A stretch of 7,319 bases of DNA from JAGLHV01 sp023143305 [NCBI: Clostridia bacterium]. Its GTDB lineage: Bacteria > CBDUZB01 > JAGLHV01. Positions 1-7,319 of this stretch are shown here, one piece after another. The notes beneath the pieces were generated by a model, which was not told where the DNA came from, did not search any database, and worked only from the letters and a program-made list of their open reading frames with translations. Where the stretch lies: assembly GCA_030637025.1 (NCBI GenBank), contig DAOVVV010000062.1, positions 1-7,319 on the forward strand. Reading direction: 5' to 3'. Positions within the stretch are counted from its first letter, which is position 1; each line of letters starts with the position of its first letter. The translations under genes were made by a program, and so were the position numbers.

Positions 1-123
1 GGCATCAGCAATTTTGACGGTGGTTACACCAGAATCGGCTATTTTACCGGTGGTTACATTTAAATCGGCTATCTTCACAGTGGTTACATTTGAGTCTGCG
101 ATCTTGGCAGTGGTTACATTGGC
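1..123 (-). repeat. Decapeptide-coding tandem repeat array 2 (at least 4 units, continues off window)
   Basis: Codons 400-439 give four decads (ANVTTAKIAD, SNVTTVKIAD, LNVTTGKIAD, SGVTTVKIAD) and codon 440 begins a fifth. The array is entered through the same NDAID-x-AKILD unit as array 1. Its full length cannot be seen. Confidence 0.9.
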
Positions 124-1320
124 ATCTAATATTTTAGCCATATCAATAGCATCATTAGCAATCTCAAGACTTGTACCGTTATCTGTAAAATCTCCGGTAT
201 CTAAATATCTTGGTGTACCTGCTACTCCGGCTTTGACCAATTCGTCACTGCCGGCACTTTGAGCTACCCATTCAAATCTACTACCGGCATTATTCCAGGC
301 CAGAACTTCCCCGTCTGCCGGGGCATCCAGCACATCTAACTTGGGTTCGGTAATTGCATTATCTGCAACTTTGGCCGTAGTTATATTAGCATCAGCTATT
401 TTTGCGGTTGTAATATTGGCATCAGCAATTTTGACGGTGGTTACACCAGAATCGGCTATTTTACCGGTGGTTACATTTAAATCGGCTATCTTGGCTGTGG
501 TTACATTAGCATCTAATATTTTCACTGTAGTTACATTGGCGTCTGCGATCTTGGCAGTGGTTATATTTGAATCTGCAATTTTAGCAGTGGTTACATTTGC
601 ATCCAATATTTTAGCCGTATCAATGGCATCATTAGCTATTTCAATACTCGTTCCATTATCTGTAAAATCACTTGTATCTAAATATCGGGGTGTACCGGCT
701 ACTCCGGCTTTGACCAATTCGTCACTTACCGAAACACTAGCCCATACAGGATTCGCTCCTGCTCCCTGGGTTTGTAAAACTTGACCTGAAACACCCACAG
801 GAAGATTTACCCAATCTAAACTATTGTAATACAACAGCTCCCCCTGGGACGGACCACCACCAAAATTAACATCTGCTAAATCTCCCAAATCGGTACTGCT
901 TCCGCTTAAATTATCTAATTCTACCCAGGTAACAGCATCTTCGTCACGATATTCCAATTTTCCTGTTGCGGGATTTACTCTAAAACCTGGTAAATTTGTA
1001 TATCCATTAATAAACCAATACAAATAAGAACCATTGGCAATTGTAAGCATTTGAAAATAATTATTAAGATCGCCGGATGGTTTAATATTAATAGATCCTT
1101 CATCATTAATAATATTTGCCTCCCCAGAATCGAGTTTCTGAAAAATAAGGTTATTTTCGTCTTGATCTTTTATAATAACCTGCGGAGAATCACCTACATT
1201 GTCATCCAATATAAAGTCTTTATCCGTTGTAGCAGAAAAAGTGTTAATTGAAAAAAAGTTTAAACTCATAAAAGAAATTGTAATAATTAAAATACCTTTA
1301 AAAAATGATTTTTGTTTCAT
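1..1320 (-). CDS. Secreted decapeptide-repeat fibre-like (tail-fibre/adhesin-type) protein, 3' end outside window
   Basis: The minus-strand frame is open for 440 codons from ATG at 1318-1320 to the left edge, with no stop. Residues 1-30 form a signal peptide: a K-rich start, a hydrophobic core and probable cleavage near TFSA/TT. Residues 33-200 are a beta-rich head or linker with short modules seen in tail-fibre-like proteins, such as LGDLADVNF, GELLYYNSLDWVN and SGQVLQTQGAGANPVWAS. Residues 241-320 are eight tandem decads of the type ANVTTAKIAD. A spacer follows (321-399) and a second decad array starts at 400 and leaves the window. Decads of this kind occur in phage tail-fibre-like and bacterial surface proteins, where trimeric stalks are expected; such proteins often end in an S74-type chaperone, which would lie outside the window. 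A strong Shine-Dalgarno sits 8 nt before the ATG. The export signal argues for a cell-surface fibre and against a cytoplasmic phage structural protein. The ligand is unknown. Confidence 0.85.
   Translation of the reverse strand, partial: MKQKSFFKGILIITISFMSLNFFSINTFSATTDKDFILDDNVGDSPQVIIKDQDENNLIFQKLDSGEANIINDEGSINIKPSGDLNNYFQMLTIANGSYLYWFINGYTNLPGFRVNPATGKLEYRDEDAVTWVELDNLSGSSTDLGDLADVNFGGGPSQGELLYYNSLDWVNLPVGVSGQVLQTQGAGANPVWASVSVSDELVKAGVAGTPRYLDTSDFTDNGTSIEIANDAIDTAKILDANVTTAKIADSNITTAKIADANVTTVKILDANVTTAKIADLNVTTGKIADSGVTTVKIADANITTAKIADANITTAKVADNAITEPKLDVLDAPADGEVLAWNNAGSRFEWVAQSAGSDELVKAGVAGTPRYLDTGDFTDNGTSLEIANDAIDMAKILDANVTTAKIADSNVTTVKIADLNVTTGKIADSGVTTVKIADA
94..249 (-). repeat. 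Inter-array module, copy 2 of a 156-bp direct repeat
   Basis: Codons 358-409 repeat codons 199-250 with an offset of 477 bp (159 codons). The proteins differ at only three of 52 positions (S/G, I/L, T/M). The module contains SDELVKAGVAGTPRYLD and leads into each decad array, so the fibre appears to be built from a long super-repeat of linker plus decad array. Confidence 0.85.
361..600 (-). repeat. Decapeptide-coding tandem repeat array 1 (8 units of 30 bp)
   Basis: Codons 241-320 of the fibre gene form eight consecutive 30-bp units with the consensus A-N-V/I-T-T-A/V-K-I-A-D. Variants include L-N-V-T-T-G-K-I-A-D and S-G-V-T-T-V-K-I-A-D. T4, T5, K7, I/V8 and D10 are nearly invariant. The array is preceded by a divergent copy (NDAIDTAKILD) and followed by a capping unit (NAITEPKLD). 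The regular hydrophobic V/I and I positions suit a repetitive beta-structured stalk (inference). Confidence 0.9.
418..492. repeat. 75-bp perfect direct repeat, partner of 1-75
   Basis: Bases 418-492 match bases 1-75 without a mismatch (offset 417 bp, 139 codons, in frame). They diverge at 76 versus 493. The left limit of the copy at 1-75 is hidden by the window edge, so 75 bp is a minimum. It encodes about 25 residues of the decad arrays. Confidence 0.92.
571..726 (-). repeat. Inter-array module, copy 1 of a 156-bp direct repeat
   Basis: Codons 199-250 of the fibre gene, paired with the copy at 94-249. It starts with SDELVKAGV and ends inside the first decads of array 1. Confidence 0.85.
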
Positions 1321-1696: not shown

Positions 1697-2128
1697 TCAA
1701 CAAAGAAAGACTTTAAGCTTTAAAAATAGGTCATCTGCTTCGGAAAAGAAAAAAGAAGGAAAACATCTTGTACGATTTTGAACATTAACAATTTCTAATT
1801 TATTTAAATTTACAATTTTTGATCTTATACTATTAATTATTTTCTTCTTTTCAATAATAGCCCAAACAATAAAAACTTCGTCAAATTGAAAAGCATCATT
1901 TAAAAACAAATTATTGTAATTTTTTACAGGTTTATTGTTTTCATCCCGGATATCTAAATCCGGAAAGACCAGATAAAGAGGTAAAAATTGTATTTTTGCA
2001 CGAAAACAAAAATCTTGTGTGTTGAGACCAAACAGAAATGATTTTTCATTAAAACAGGAAGCATAAGTTTTACTGCTCCACATAAAAAAAACCAACAAAG
2101 CAAAAAGAATAAACTTGCTTTTTTTCAC
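1697..2128 (-). CDS. Small secreted four-cysteine protein of unknown family
   Basis: The protein has 143 residues from a GTG start at 2126-2128, with GGAG at 2136-2139 placed 7 nt upstream. Residues 1-23 are a clear signal peptide (MKKSKF, hydrophobic core, cleavage TYA/SC), so the product is exported to the periplasm or beyond. The mature part of about 120 residues has cysteines at 25, 41, 122 and 143, the last being the C-terminal residue. Two disulfides are plausible. It is rich in Phe, Lys and Asn, with alternating hydrophobic stretches (FQFDEVFIVWAII) suggesting beta-strands. I recognise no family and assign no function. It is the first gene downstream of the c-di-GMP-I-like riboswitch and terminator, which strongly suggests it is a regulated surface-lifestyle gene. 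The C-terminal Cys leaves open that the frame ends prematurely. Confidence 0.72.
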   Translation of the reverse strand: MKKSKFILFALLVFFMWSSKTYASCFNEKSFLFGLNTQDFCFRAKIQFLPLYLVFPDLDIRDENNKPVKNYNNLFLNDAFQFDEVFIVWAIIEKKKIINSIRSKIVNLNKLEIVNVQNRTRCFPSFFFSEADDLFLKLKVFLC

Positions 2129-2156
2129 TTTCCCTCTCCAAAATTACTCTTAATAT

Positions 2157-2202
2157 AAAAAAACCGCGTTACTCCGTTTTTTATCTACGGTTAACCCGGT
2201 TT
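2157..2202 (-). terminator. Riboswitch-associated intrinsic terminator
   Basis: On the minus strand AAACCG (2202-2197) pairs with CGGTTT (2166-2161). After a G/G mismatch GTTA pairs with TAAC, and after a small internal loop CCGT pairs with ACGG. The loop is A-rich, and a run of seven T (2163-2157) follows directly. It lies between the aptamer and the start of the four-Cys gene, the position of a transcription-attenuation expression platform. The segment ACCGTAG (2191-2185) in its 5' arm is complementary to CTACGGT (2257-2251) in the aptamer, so the two structures can exclude each other. Confidence 0.78.
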
Positions 2203-2220
2203 ATTTTTTATTTAAACCCT

Positions 2221-2294
2221 GGCAACTCAGCCTCCCATAATAATTATGGGACCGTAGTTTTGTGCCCCCCGGTTTCCCGGGGTTTACCTTTATC
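2221..2294 (-). ncRNA. Cyclic-di-GMP-I (GEMM-I) type riboswitch aptamer
   Basis: The minus strand reads GATAAAGGTAAACC, then a hairpin with stem CCCCGG/CCGGGG closed by a GAAA tetraloop (2282-2267). Next come GGCACAAAACTACGG, a second hairpin with stem TCCCATAA/TTATGGGA (2251-2233), and finally GGCTGAGTTGCC. GGTAA (2288-2284) pairs with TTGCC (2225-2221) to close P1. The GGYAAACC start, the GAAA-capped P2, the CRCAAARCYA-like joining strand and the GUUGCC end all match the GEMM-I consensus as I know it. The G of GGTAAACC is retained, which favours c-di-GMP over the cGAMP-type variants (inference). It sits about 95 nt upstream of the four-Cys gene, with a promoter before it and a terminator after it. 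Confidence 0.82.
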
Positions 2295-2335
2295 AGAGCA
2301 ATTTAATTTGCTTTATTTAATTATCAATTAATCAT

Positions 2336-2351
2336 TGTGATTTTTATCACA
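2336..2351. promoter_or_regulatory. Perfect CRP-type palindrome (possible Crp/Fnr-family operator)
   Basis: TGTGA-N6-TCACA is a perfect inverted repeat equal to the half-sites of the E. coli CRP consensus. It lies just downstream of the predicted -10 of the riboswitch promoter (2364-2369), around +6 to +21, where binding would be expected to repress. Whether this organism has a matching Crp/Fnr regulator is unknown. The same bases could also form a hairpin in the leader RNA. Confidence 0.5.
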
Positions 2352-2363
2352 TTTACTACTCTA

Positions 2364-2391
2364 AATATAACCTCTTTTTTCATTTTGTCAA
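2364..2391 (-). promoter_or_regulatory. Sigma70-type promoter of the riboswitch leader
   Basis: TTGACA (2391-2386) and TATATT (2369-2364) are separated by 16 bp, a near-consensus housekeeping promoter pointing at the aptamer and the four-Cys gene. The predicted start is near 2357, giving a leader of about 230 nt. Confidence 0.78.
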
Positions 2392-4475: not shown

Positions 4476-5492
4476 TTAAAAGGTAACACGCAGAGAAAAA
4501 CGATTGGTCCAACTCAAATCTTCCTGTATATCCATTAAAACAGCATAATCAATTTTCGCTTTAACTATCTTTAAAGGAAGAGTTAAACTGGTGCCTATGG
4601 TAGGATTGAAATTACTGCTCCCTGCTCTAAGACAAATATTTTTTCCTACTTGATATTCACTGCCCAAATAAAGTTTTACATCCTGCTCGAGAGTTTTTTC
4701 TACATCCAAAGCTAATAATAATTTACTTTTTAAGGGCCTATACGCACCCCCCAATCTTATGTTTAATAAAATATCATCTTTTACCGACCCCCCATCCAAA
4801 GACCATTTTAAAGAACCCATTATATTTTGTATATTCAATCCAAAAGACCACTGCTTTGTAGGTTTATACATCGTTCCTACATCTAAACTAAAACCCGTTG
4901 CTTTTTCTCTTTCTAATTTTTGTATATGGTATTTAAAACTTGTTCCGCAATAAAAATTTTTTCTTATTTTTTTTCCATAACCAACAATAAAAGTATCTTC
5001 CCTGTCTTCAAAATTTCCTGTCGGCCGGCCGTAATCATCTCTTCCTTCAATATTTTTTACACTAAAATTTATCCAACCAACAGCAATTCCACCGTAAGAC
5101 GGCTCCCGGTCTTCATCAGCAAATGACCAACTACTTGCAAAAGTACCCTCATCTTCGTCATCTCCCAATTTTAATGGATAAACATAATCCAAATAATTAT
5201 AAAAACGATCTACCCCTAATGAACCGGACATAAGCATTGTTTGATGTTGACGGATCTGTGACAATCCTGCCGGATTCCAGTAAAGACTGGAAGAACCATC
5301 TGCTACTGCTACAAAAGCATTCCCCATCCCTAAAGGTCTTGCTCCCACTCCCATACTAAGATAAGCACCTGCCCCCTTAGCCAAACCTTCATCATCTGCC
5401 AACAACAAACACTTAGAAAAAATTAAAAACAATATTAAAAAAAACAAACTACATAGAATTTTTTTTAAACAACAATCGTTTTTATGCTTCAT
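4476..5492 (-). CDS. PorV/PorQ (UPF0164) family outer-membrane beta-barrel protein
   Basis: The protein has 338 residues from ATG at 5490-5492. Residues 1-32 are a long signal peptide with a strong hydrophobic core (LFFLILFLIF), cleaved near LLLA/DD. The mature N-terminus carries the FadL/PorV-like signature GVGARPLGMGNAFVAVADG followed by YWNPAGL (about 48-77). The rest alternates short amphipathic strands and turns, and the last residue is an aromatic Phe (FSLRVTF), typical of outer-membrane barrels. In Bacteroidota, PorV is the outer-membrane shuttle that hands type IX cargo to the cell surface; other family members have no known role. The gene follows a CTD-bearing secreted protein by 49 bp, so co-transcription and a functional link are likely. 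The frame can be read from a TTG nine bases further upstream (5499-5501), but that codon abuts the Shine-Dalgarno. Confidence 0.88.
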   Translation of the reverse strand: MKHKNDCCLKKILCSLFFLILFLIFSKCLLLADDEGLAKGAGAYLSMGVGARPLGMGNAFVAVADGSSSLYWNPAGLSQIRQHQTMLMSGSLGVDRFYNYLDYVYPLKLGDDEDEGTFASSWSFADEDREPSYGGIAVGWINFSVKNIEGRDDYGRPTGNFEDREDTFIVGYGKKIRKNFYCGTSFKYHIQKLEREKATGFSLDVGTMYKPTKQWSFGLNIQNIMGSLKWSLDGGSVKDDILLNIRLGGAYRPLKSKLLLALDVEKTLEQDVKLYLGSEYQVGKNICLRAGSSNFNPTIGTSLTLPLKIVKAKIDYAVLMDIQEDLSWTNRFSLRVTF

Positions 5493-5501
5493 TAAAATCA
5501 A

Positions 5502-5507
5502 CCTCTT
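5502..5507 (-). promoter_or_regulatory. Ribosome binding site that sets the PorV-like start
   Basis: AAGAGG ends 9 nt before ATG at 5490-5492 but directly abuts the in-frame TTG at 5499-5501. Translation therefore starts at the ATG, and the longer frame from TTG should not be used. Confidence 0.75.
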
Positions 5508-5541
5508 ACTTTCACTTTAAAACCAATATACTTGAAAAAGA

Positions 5542-7319
5542 TTACCGCTTAATTACCGCAATTTTTTTGATTACTGTTCTTTCTTTTCCTCCCCAGGTAG
5601 CAACAACCCGGTAAAGATACACCCCGTTAGCCACATCATTTATATCCCAATCCACTCCAAAATGACCGCTTCCGTTAGTAGTAGTTTTATAAGTTTTTAC
5701 CCGTTTTCCGGCAGCAGTAAATATTTCCACTTCAACCTCTGCTGATTCTTCGGTATAAAATACAATGCGTACCGGATTTTGCCTAACCGGGTTAGGATAA
5801 CAAAAAGCTTCTAATTTTTCCGTATCCTCAAAAGGCCGAAATAAAACGACATTAATATTTTCAGTATCAGTCCCCGGACCTACATTTACCGGCATTGTCC
5901 TATTAGCATAACCTGAAGCAGTGGCCACAATCTGGTAAGTTCCCGGGGTTAAATTTTCAATTAAAAAGGTTCCATCGGAAAAAGGTGTAGTAGTAGCTGC
6001 TAATATACCGTTATAAAAGATATTAATTGTCGCTGATACTAAGGGTTGGGCATCACTATTGGTAACCCGTCCGTGAATTGAATTAGGTAAAGCGGGAATA
6101 TATATTGACTTGTTGACAGTCATAGAATCCCCTTCGGCATAACAGGTAACTGAAAAATTTACATATCCGGTCATTGAACCTAAAGGTTTTACCCGCCATT
6201 CTCTTTGTACAATTTCCTCCGCAGGTACATCTCCCAGAGATTTTTCTGCAATCTCTCCGGTATCAAAAATCAATCCGGGAGCTAAATTAAACTTCACCGT
6301 TGCCCCACTAACTGTATGACCCGAAGAATTTTTCAGATAACACACGGTAGTAAAAGGGTCCGGCACATATTCATTACTTCCATCTATCTGGAGAAATTCC
6401 GGAGCCGATAAACCAATATTAAAAGGATTCCATTGTACATAAGTCATCCCTCCTAAACCATAACCTGTACCGTAAGTTCTGGATTGTCCGAAAATAAAAT
6501 TTTGCGGATTCCAGGAAATAACTACCGCACTGTCATAAAATTCAACGGGAGGAGACTCAATTGTGTAATTCCAGGGGGCAGAGGGACTATCCCCGCTATA
6601 AGCTTTTGGCCAGGAACCAAGAACAAGACGGTCAGGGTCAGAAAAACCTACCCCGGTTATAGAAAACATAGAAAGCACGGAAGGGTCATCAAAATTATCA
6701 AATACCTGAAAATACTGAGGAATGGTATCTGCCGGGCTCACCCACTCTTTTTCCACCGTAACTTCCCCAAATCCTAAAACACGAAAAGGAGCACCGTCAT
6801 TATCGCCTAACATTGTATCTAACATTAAAGAAAGCCCTATATCCGGTGAACTACTTCCTTCATTTCTTATTTCATAGGCAATCTGTAAATTATCTTCTCT
6901 CCCTGTAGAAAAACTTCTTACGATAGTAAGAGTTTGGGTAACTACTATTTGCGAACCGATCTCCCAGGAAGCAACTAAACTTCCTCCTTGTTGACAGGGA
7001 GGAATAATCCATGTCCCCCCGGAACCAAAGATATAATCAACTCCATCTATCCTGATGGAAGTAAATGAACTCCAGGGATTAGGATGTCCAAACAATAATA
7101 TTTTATCATCGTCGTTAGAATTATTTGGGTCTCCTCCAATATTGCCCAGGGTAAATCTTCCATTTTCAGCAATTACCGCCTGAATATAATCATTGGAGAT
7201 ATTAGGATAAGAAGTTTCAGCAGGAAGAGGTGGAGCAAGTGCAGATTTTAGGACTACCGGCCCGGCCCATACACTCATAGAAAATAAAAGAAAAATTGCC
7301 ATTAACCCATTAATAAACA
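5542..7319 (-). CDS. Secreted multidomain surface protein with CarboxypepD-regulatory-like and T9SS/FlgD-like C-terminal domains, 5' end outside window
   Basis: Residue numbers count from the in-window ATG at 7300-7302, giving 586 residues. Residues 1-13 are the hydrophobic end of a signal peptide (MAIFLLFSMSVWA). No basic residue and no Shine-Dalgarno precede this ATG, and the frame stays open to the right edge, so the real start is probably just outside. Residues 35-300 are a beta-rich domain of unknown family with ENGRFTLGNIGGDPNN and a DDDK-x-LLFGHPNP segment. Residues 300-400 resemble an Ig/CARDB-like domain. Residues 408-485 fit a carboxypeptidase-regulatory-like fold (HGRVTNSDAQPLVSATI, then GTFLIENLTPGTYQIVA). 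Residues 498-586 form a C-terminal domain beginning CYPNPV, with IFTAAGKRVKTY, ANGVYLYRV and KKIAVIKR, typical of T9SS type A sorting or FlgD Ig-like domains. It is probably exported and surface-anchored or secreted. The PorV-like gene follows in the same orientation. Confidence 0.85.
   Translation of the reverse strand, partial: FINGLMAIFLLFSMSVWAGPVVLKSALAPPLPAETSYPNISNDYIQAVIAENGRFTLGNIGGDPNNSNDDDKILLFGHPNPWSSFTSIRIDGVDYIFGSGGTWIIPPCQQGGSLVASWEIGSQIVVTQTLTIVRSFSTGREDNLQIAYEIRNEGSSSPDIGLSLMLDTMLGDNDGAPFRVLGFGEVTVEKEWVSPADTIPQYFQVFDNFDDPSVLSMFSITGVGFSDPDRLVLGSWPKAYSGDSPSAPWNYTIESPPVEFYDSAVVISWNPQNFIFGQSRTYGTGYGLGGMTYVQWNPFNIGLSAPEFLQIDGSNEYVPDPFTTVCYLKNSSGHTVSGATVKFNLAPGLIFDTGEIAEKSLGDVPAEEIVQREWRVKPLGSMTGYVNFSVTCYAEGDSMTVNKSIYIPALPNSIHGRVTNSDAQPLVSATINIFYNGILAATTTPFSDGTFLIENLTPGTYQIVATASGYANRTMPVNVGPGTDTENINVVLFRPFEDTEKLEAFCYPNPVRQNPVRIVFYTEESAEVEVEIFTAAGKRVKTYKTTTNGSGHFGVDWDINDVANGVYLYRVVATWGGKERTVIKKIAVIKR

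What the first reader, a model, noticed from the sequence alone, without database searches (positions are those of the whole stretch)
2157..2391. Complete c-di-GMP-I-type transcriptional riboswitch with a visible mutually exclusive antiterminator
Promoter, aptamer, terminator and T-run can all be read in order on the minus strand. Within the aptamer, CTACGGT (2257-2251) is exactly complementary to ACCGTAG (2191-2185), which belongs to the 5' arm of the terminator. Ligand binding should keep the first segment in the aptamer and let the terminator form, which predicts an OFF switch. Without ligand the 7-bp antiterminator pairing would allow transcription. The target is a secreted protein of unknown family, so the switch gives a functional clue (cyclic dinucleotide, surface lifestyle) for an otherwise uncharacterised gene.
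Basis: partly seen in the sequence, partly recalled or inferred. Interest (0 to 1): 0.68.

Follow-up and report, generated by a model that had tools for sequence, protein, structure and literature searches.

The report
c-di-GMP OFF riboswitch, uncultured bacterium
This stretch is an ordinary-class RNA sensor for the bacterial signal c-di-GMP that most likely shuts off a small secreted protein when the signal is high, in a little-known bacterial lineage that carries 12 to 19 such sensors per genome.

Summary
Window 2298-2217 (minus) is a c-di-GMP-I clan aptamer (RF03167 62.3 bits; RF01051 65.4 bits on the genome's copy), behind a TTGACA-16-TATATT promoter and before a terminator with a U-run. 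Rfam's label "c-di-GMP-I-GGC" is misleading: the three ligand-contact positions read G, A, C, the canonical c-di-GMP-I set; the GGC model has G second. Comparison supports it: 16 of 43 copies in the three genomes held for this phylum share it, with compensatory changes. Folding predicts that it forms before the terminator's 3' arm is made and loses afterwards, so a ligand-induced OFF switch is the best reading. Correction: the antiterminator overlaps only the terminator's inner helix, so exclusion is kinetic and topological. Added: a Crp-type palindrome follows the -10 box in all 7 leaders of this secreted-protein family. OFF and ON layouts coexist in the genus. This is a known riboswitch kind in a little-known lineage; ligand and polarity are untested experimentally.

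The parts
2386..2391 (-). -35 box TTGACA
   Evidence: a promoter-like pair scoring 9 or more stands before 41 of 43 copies
2364..2369 (-). -10 box TATATT (16-base spacer)
2336..2351 (.). Crp-type palindrome TGTGATAAAAATCACA (minus strand), between -10 box and aptamer
   Evidence: TGTGA-N6-NCACA within 150 nt before the aptamer in 7 of 7 leaders of this protein family and in 1 of 36 other copies
2217..2298 (-). c-di-GMP-I aptamer; GAAA tetraloop 2276-2273; ligand-contact positions G 2288, A 2261, C 2222 (Vc2 numbering 20, 47, 92)
   Evidence: Vc2 numbering from recall
2251..2257 (-). switching strand CTACGGT (5' strand of the aptamer's receptor helix)
2185..2191 (-). antiterminator partner ACCGTAG, at the top of the terminator hairpin
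2213..2218 (-). GGUUUA, predicted to pair with UAAACC 2203-2198 in the antiterminated state (already one base different in the G000 contig)
2161..2202 (-). intrinsic terminator hairpin
2157..2163 (-). U-run of the terminator
2132..2139 (-). Shine-Dalgarno-like GGAGAGGG
1697..2128 (-). controlled gene: 143-aa protein with signal-peptide-like start (GTG), no Pfam family at E 1; 6 other riboswitch-led members in the three genomes, one of them cut by a contig end

Best explanation
A c-di-GMP-I (GEMM-I) riboswitch that works by transcription termination as an OFF switch. RNA polymerase starts about 60 nt upstream of the aptamer. The aptamer (2298-2217) is complete about 30 nt before the antiterminator partner (2191-2185) is fully made. 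If c-di-GMP has bound, strand 2257-2251 stays inside the aptamer, the terminator (2202-2161) folds and transcription ends at about 2157, before the secreted-protein gene. If not, 2257-2251 pairs with 2191-2185 as it emerges, the terminator folds too late, and the gene is transcribed. A Crp-family protein probably gates the same promoter through the palindrome at 2351-2336. Shown by computation: aptamer class, contact residues, terminator, covarying antiterminator, its predicted dominance just before the terminator's 3' arm appears. Inferred: start site, ligand, polarity, kinetics, the Crp input.
For: RF03167 62.3 bits and RF01051 65.4 bits against a cut-off of 35 on the genome's copy. Contact positions G/A/C as in the RF01051 consensus. 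16 of 43 copies carry the same platform; antiterminator pairs 44-139 (A-U to G-C in 3 sequences), 47-137 (G-C to A-U in 2) and 49-135 change on both sides, and sliding the partner by 1-3 columns drops pairing from 90.2% to 24-57%. Terminator stem 91.5% of cells paired. Stepwise folding of the window RNA: P(antiterminator) 0.87 when the transcript ends at 2185, 0.81 at 2168, 0.19 at 2164, 0.00 at 2161. The genome has 8 GGDEF matches, four of them complete domains with GGEEF or GGDEF, and 3 PilZ matches, so c-di-GMP is very likely made and sensed.
Against: No experiment. Four of the 16 platform copies have mispairs in the six-pair core (G001:C2, G002:C152, G001:C346 one each, G002:C72 two), and the seventh pair, 49-135, is unpaired in 7 of 16. 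With the transcript cut 2 nt past the partner, antiterminator probability is below 0.5 in 2 of 16 (G001:C2 0.02, G002:C169:28281 0.12); cut 8 nt past it, in 4 of 16 (also G002:C152 0.27, G001:C346 0.19). At full length the terminator wins without ligand (P at most 0.01 in 15 of 16 and 0.36 in G001:C34), so OFF control depends on kinetics. Shared ancestry inflates the covariation counts: the A-U to G-C change looks like two events. Two of the five covariation measures do not beat shuffles (pairs with a change on both sides, 165 of 500; pair types, 363 of 500), nor do the extension pairs 50-52/129-131 (73 of 500). No EAL phosphodiesterase was found in the 94.7%-complete genome (HD-GYP not searched).
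Confidence: 0.8

Rival explanations
1. The aptamer is of the same clan but senses another cyclic dinucleotide, such as 3',3'-cGAMP.
For: The clan contains cGAMP-selective members (PMC9262584, passages); 4 of the 43 copies (G000:C125, G000:C323:7260, G001:C179, G002:C56) carry A at position 20, the base tied to cGAMP sensing (G20A discussed in PMC6274999, passages seen).
Against: The window copy has G20, A47, C92. Two of the four A20 copies have counterparts with G20 before similar genes in the sister genomes (judged by eye), which suggests drift more than a fixed ligand change.
Confidence: 0.08
2. It belongs to the variant c-di-GMP-I-GGC (RF03167) with a different ligand preference, as the top Rfam hit says.
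For: RF03167 is the best clan hit by E-value (1.7e-14 against 9.5e-13 for RF01051 in the genome) and exceeds its cut-off (62.3 against 59); 8 of 12 copies in the genome exceed it.
Against: The model has G where this sequence and its relatives have A; no copy shows G there (39 of 43 read by script, the remaining 4 by eye). RF01051 gives a higher bit score (65.4) and 30 bits of margin over its cut-off instead of 3.
Confidence: 0.06
3. The terminator is constitutive attenuation; aptamer and antiterminator are decayed and ligand-independent.
For: Full-length folding of the window ends in the terminator without ligand; one relative (G001:C346) looks decayed at its aptamer 3' end.
Against: Aptamer core, promoter, terminator and antiterminator are kept together in the seven family members in three genomes (two of them with one mispair), with compensatory change.
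Confidence: 0.05
4. An ON switch: ligand disrupts the terminator.
For: 15 of 43 copies in these genomes have the ON layout, with the terminator's 5' arm overlapping the aptamer 3' strand (14, plus G000:C31:2572).
Against: In the window the terminator begins about 15 nt after the aptamer and shares no base with it, so bound aptamer and terminator can coexist.
Confidence: 0.03

Closest known systems
c-di-GMP-I (GEMM-I) riboswitch, Rfam RF01051
   Same: Aptamer fold, GAAA tetraloop, contact residues G20/A47/C92, position between promoter and gene.
   Different: Host lineage and controlled protein family; Rfam ranks it under RF03167 by E-value.
Cd1 of Clostridioides difficile (class I OFF switch; PMC9262584, abstract and passages seen)
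   Same: OFF control by termination: aptamer and terminator can coexist and compete with a transient antiterminator.
   Different: In Cd1 the antiterminator takes the aptamer's 3' strand (G147-C87, C148-G86). Here it takes the internal 5' strand of the receptor helix. The stretch between finished aptamer and finished antiterminator is about 32 nt here; the paper's abstract gives a 61-nt binding window for Cd1.
pilM of Geobacter metallireducens (cGAMP ON switch; PMC9262584, abstract and passages seen)
   Same: The ON-layout copies of this genus have its plan: terminator 5' arm is the aptamer's 3' strand.
   Different: Not the layout of the window copy; ligand differs.

Membership tests
c-di-GMP-I riboswitch (RF01051) | Covariance-model score above the gathering cut-off | tested here: met
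   65.4 bits against 35 in the genome copy of the window
c-di-GMP-I riboswitch (RF01051) | G20, A47, C92 at the ligand contacts | tested here: met
   Alignment to consensus; positions checked; Vc2 numbering recalled
c-di-GMP-I riboswitch (RF01051) | Tetraloop hairpin and receptor helix | tested here: met
   GAAA loop and both helices aligned; tertiary docking not testable
c-di-GMP-I riboswitch (RF01051) | Binds c-di-GMP with high affinity | not testable with these tools
   needs in-line probing or ITC
c-di-GMP-I riboswitch (RF01051) | Expression platform before a gene | tested here: met
   terminator plus covarying antiterminator
c-di-GMP-I-GGC (RF03167) | Score above cut-off | tested here: met
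   62.3 against 59
c-di-GMP-I-GGC (RF03167) | G at the position of A47 (the middle G of GGC; meaning of the name inferred from the RF03167, RF03168 and RF01051 consensus lines) | tested here: not met
   A in the window and in all 43 copies (39 by script, 4 by eye)
3',3'-cGAMP (GEMM-Ib) riboswitch | A20 | tested here: not met
   G20 in the window
Cd1-type OFF platform | Antiterminator pairs the aptamer's 3' closing strand | tested here: not met
   here the 5' receptor-helix strand pairs
Crp-regulated promoter | TGTGA-N6-TCACA site near the promoter and a Crp-family protein in the genome | tested here: met
   site 2351-2336; one HTH_Crp_2 match in each of 3 genomes
Crp-regulated promoter | The protein binds the site and changes transcription | not testable with these tools
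   needs gel shift and reporter assays

The most novel reading that the evidence does not exclude
The leader is a two-signal gate: a Crp-family protein at the promoter and c-di-GMP at the terminator jointly control a lineage-restricted secreted protein. It is part of a genus-wide regulon in which one c-di-GMP-I aptamer type is wired in both polarities, and the OFF form uses an antiterminator on an internal aptamer strand not used in Cd1.
Probability: 0.35. Interest if true: 0.5.

Novelty: new member of a known kind. Interest (0 to 1): 0.36.

Why it matters
It places a riboswitch-heavy c-di-GMP regulon (12, 12 and at least 19 hits per genome of 1.8-2.6 Mb) in a phylum of which only three genomes are held here. 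For comparison, C. [quoted passage not shown] The set of 43 leaders gives natural compensatory variants for testing antitermination, ties an orphan secreted protein family to c-di-GMP, and shows that Rfam's GGC label can attach to aptamers with canonical contacts.

Tried and rejected
Structure prediction of the secreted protein from a two-sequence alignment gave mean pLDDT 38.5, so no fold search was made. Pfam (window protein, 0 families at E 1), NCBIfam (hits far below cut-off and unrelated) and a PDB profile search (0 hits) gave no family. A genome-contig scan with the protein reported no relative, but this negative is weak: the same collection holds L048, which encodes a 57%-identical relative. 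The original description of the GGC/UAU variants (doi 10.1093/nar/gkx699, recalled) is not held. The three papers that name c-di-GMP-I-GGC were seen as a listing, one of them also in passages, none of which speak of its ligand. An automatic ON/OFF classifier was too permissive (22 "ON-like", some plainly by chance) and is used for one copy only, checked by eye; it also calls G002:C169:18483 "other", which one search gives as overlapping. The automatic terminator finder missed or misplaced hairpins in several copies, among them an overlap for G002:C169:28281 that I dropped as spurious because that copy has the OFF layout; these were read by eye. An RNA-hairpin reading of the palindrome (UGUGA/UCACA stem) was considered; it is less likely because G002:C32 carries the palindrome upstream of its promoter, but it is not excluded. 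Paper searches on Crp with c-di-GMP-I (10 of 654 papers listed), c-di-GMP riboswitches with pilin or candidate phylum (10 of 60 listed), antiterminators of c-di-GMP riboswitches (20 of 23 listed, 2 of 2) and doubled 3' halves (1 of 1) showed no direct precedent in the titles and abstract starts; most were not opened, so this is no proof of absence. PMC11218506 (Bc1, a c-di-GMP-I switch with a long platform and two terminators) was seen only in listings.

Full report
What is there. On the minus strand the window holds, in order, a strong sigma-70-type promoter (TTGACA 2391-2386, 16 bases, TATATT 2369-2364), an aptamer at 2298-2217, a terminator hairpin at 2202-2161 running into U7 (2163-2157), a Shine-Dalgarno-like GGAGAGGG and a GTG-started 143-codon gene with a signal-peptide-like beginning (2128-1697). 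The simple terminator scan did not list this hairpin, whose loop of 9 lies outside its limits; folds it at -15.3 kcal/mol, z -2.6.

Aptamer class. cmscan gives RF03167 (c-di-GMP-I-GGC) at 62.3 bits, E 3e-13, cut-off 59. In the genome search the same place scores 65.4 bits with RF01051, cut-off 35, though RF03167 has the better E-value there too (1.7e-14 against 9.5e-13). The consensus lines of RF01051, RF03167 and RF03168 differ at three ligand-contact positions, which I read (numbering of Vc2 recalled) as 20, 47 and 92: G/A/C, G/G/C and U/A/U. The window has G/A/C at 2288, 2261 and 2222. So by contacts it is a canonical c-di-GMP-I aptamer, and the GGC label fails on its defining base. Among all 43 copies described below none has G47 (39 by script, 4 by eye).

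The host. The window matches contig C38 of G000 at 99.89% over 4717 bases. Searches of family, order and phylum all return the same three genomes of one genus, so only three genomes of this phylum are held. RF01051 finds 12, 12 and 19 places in them (43 in all, 42 above the cut-off); in the third genome 150 of 173 candidates were scored, so 19 is a lower bound. A named relative (JAUVLC010000031.1, "MAG: Clostridia bacterium isolate CSMAG_496", L048) carries the syntenic orthologue; its length equals that of G002 contig C152 (23202 bases). The own genome has 8 GGDEF matches (four complete domains with GGEEF or GGDEF; one complete with an altered motif, one degenerate and two cut by contig ends), 3 PilZ matches, no EAL match (HD-GYP not searched), one HTH_Crp_2 match and 2 class III cyclase matches.

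The antiterminator. In the single sequence the 7-bp match is not significant: 33% of simulated downstream stretches contain a perfect match of 7 or more to some part of the aptamer. But 16 of 43 leaders have a hexamer at the top of the terminator hairpin that pairs with the same aptamer strand: 12 of 16 pair at all six positions (G-U counted), three at five, one at four. Both sides change together: CTACGG/CCGTAG becomes CTGCGG/CCGCAG in G001:C34 and, separately, in the counterparts G001:C5 and G002:C137; CTACAG and TTACAG meet CTGTAG in G001:C112 and G002:C169. On a MAFFT alignment of the 16, with a seventh pair added, 90.2% of cells pair (shuffles 85.4 +/- 2.0; 4 of 500 as high), 9 cells have changes on both sides (4.3 +/- 1.4; 0 of 500), the covariation score is 0.260 (0.175 +/- 0.027; 0 of 500), and slid versions pair at 24-57%. 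The number of pairs with a change on both sides (3) and of pair types (7) does not beat shuffles (165 and 363 of 500), and the seventh pair is open in 7 of 16. The terminator stem pairs at 91.5% (shuffles 89.4 +/- 0.9, 9 of 500 as high). A possible three-pair extension (columns 50-52 with 129-131) pairs at 91.7% but does not beat shuffles.

How it works. Stepwise folding of the window RNA gives P(antiterminator) 0.00 when the transcript ends at 2192, 0.87 at 2185, 0.81 at 2168, 0.19 at 2164 and 0.00 at 2161. At 2183 the free fold is 5.2 kcal/mol better than aptamer plus separately folded downstream RNA (-40.1 against -34.9). Ligand binding therefore has to hold the aptamer for about 30 nt of transcription; without it the antiterminator forms first and the terminator comes late. 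In the 16 copies of G000-G002 the antiterminator reaches at least 0.5 in 14 when the transcript is cut 2 nt past the partner (below: G001:C2 0.02, G002:C169:28281 0.12) and in 12 when it is cut 8 nt past it (also below: G002:C152 0.27, G001:C346 0.19). In the window an additional predicted hairpin 2218-2213/2203-2198 covers the foot of the terminator's 5' arm; the G000 contig differs by a base there, where the predicted pairing is shorter.

A second input. The leader contains TGTGATAAAAATCACA at 2351-2336, between the -10 box and the aptamer. TGTGA-N6-TCACA occurs exactly at only 6 places in the three genomes (reversed-pattern control: 3), and 5 of the 6 lie in front of a c-di-GMP-I riboswitch. 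In the form TGTGA-N6-NCACA within 150 nt before the aptamer it is in 7 of 7 leaders of this secreted-protein family, in 1 of the 36 others (G002:C32, there upstream of the promoter), and in none of the remaining 35. Several of the 7 are orthologues or paralogues, so they are not independent. The sixth exact site, in G002:C68, lies just upstream of an outer-membrane-protein-like gene (judged by eye). Each genome has one HTH_Crp_2 protein; the two complete ones have a GE...RSA motif as in cyclic-nucleotide binders and an R-E-x-x-x-K recognition helix (meaning of these residues recalled from E. coli CRP). The position downstream of the -10 box suggests repression or a roadblock. This is inference.

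What it controls. Of the seven family members six are complete and align over their whole length (46-57% identity to the window protein); they have no Pfam (window protein), NCBIfam or PDB relative. Of 10 other proteins behind these riboswitches scanned with Pfam, 5 had no family at E 0.01; above the curated cut-off were a DUF7305 protein (also a sub-threshold PilX_N match), a subtilase and a protein with a T9SS_plug_1st match; DUF4900 and HEAT_2 matches were below it. This fits a cell-surface regulon but does not prove one.

Comparison with what is known. Cd1 of C. difficile is the nearest functional parallel (PMC9262584, abstract and passages seen): an OFF switch in which aptamer and terminator coexist and compete with an antiterminator; but its antiterminator takes the aptamer's 3' strand. 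pilM in the same paper is an ON switch whose terminator takes the aptamer's 3' strand, a layout found in 15 of the 43 copies here (14, one; 3 of the 15 have doubled 3' halves, so their polarity is open, and disputes one, G002:C169:18483). In C. difficile the tested class I switches were OFF and class II ON (PMC6200980, abstract; a passage says all but one class I); the same paper recalls that Vibrio cholerae Vc1 and Vc2 leaders are controlled both at the promoter and by the riboswitch, so two-level control has precedent. Here one class appears with both layouts in one genus. Each element is known separately, so I file this as a new member of a known kind, with a platform variant.

Noticed in passing
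L021 4468-4609; L060 3943-4084; L074 2822-2962; L065 near 1520; L081 near 1694; L085 458-619: Six of the 43 copies have one aptamer 5' half followed by two alternative 3' halves, the second being the terminator's 5' arm. In L021 the first half alone still gives a clan match (RF03168 55.4 bits, E 5.7e-12 in a 111-base search, below its cut-off of 65.9) and the second gives RF03167 60.9 bits. Read by eye, the first half has U and the second C at contact position 92 in L021, L060 and L085, but C in both in the G002 counterpart (L074) and in L065 and L081. It may be a strand-swap switch with reversed or graded response, perhaps even two ligands, or a relic of a tandem.
   Followed up: partly
L018 1078-1161; L017 7260-7343; L064 1567-1647; L079 3307-3387: Four of 43 copies carry A at position 20 (the cGAMP-type base); the first two have G20 counterparts before similar genes in the sister genomes (by eye), so the contact base changes between species. 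L064 and L079 pass the cut-off of RF03168 (c-di-GMP-I-UAU) although they have A and C, not U, at positions 20 and 92.
   Followed up: partly
43 copies in L017-L025 and L058-L085: The same aptamer class is used with OFF layout (16 copies) and ON layout (15 copies, three of them with doubled 3' halves) in one genus; three copies (L018, L061, L073) have a start codon 2 nt after the aptamer and no terminator found.
   Followed up: partly
window 1-1320, minus strand: Secreted-looking protein with many degenerate repeats of the type NVTTAKIADSNITT, tail-fibre-like in look; only weak Pfam matches below cut-off.
   Followed up: no
window 4476-7302, minus strand: A protein with sub-threshold PorV/UPF0164 matches and one with Por_Secre_tail and FlgD_ig domains lie next to a glycogen phosphorylase-like gene, hinting at type IX-like secretion in this lineage.
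   Followed up: no
L075 1887-5098: Behind one sister copy the secreted protein is followed by three small secreted-looking proteins and a 269-aa one, none with a Pfam match above cut-off, perhaps a pilus-like operon.
   Followed up: partly
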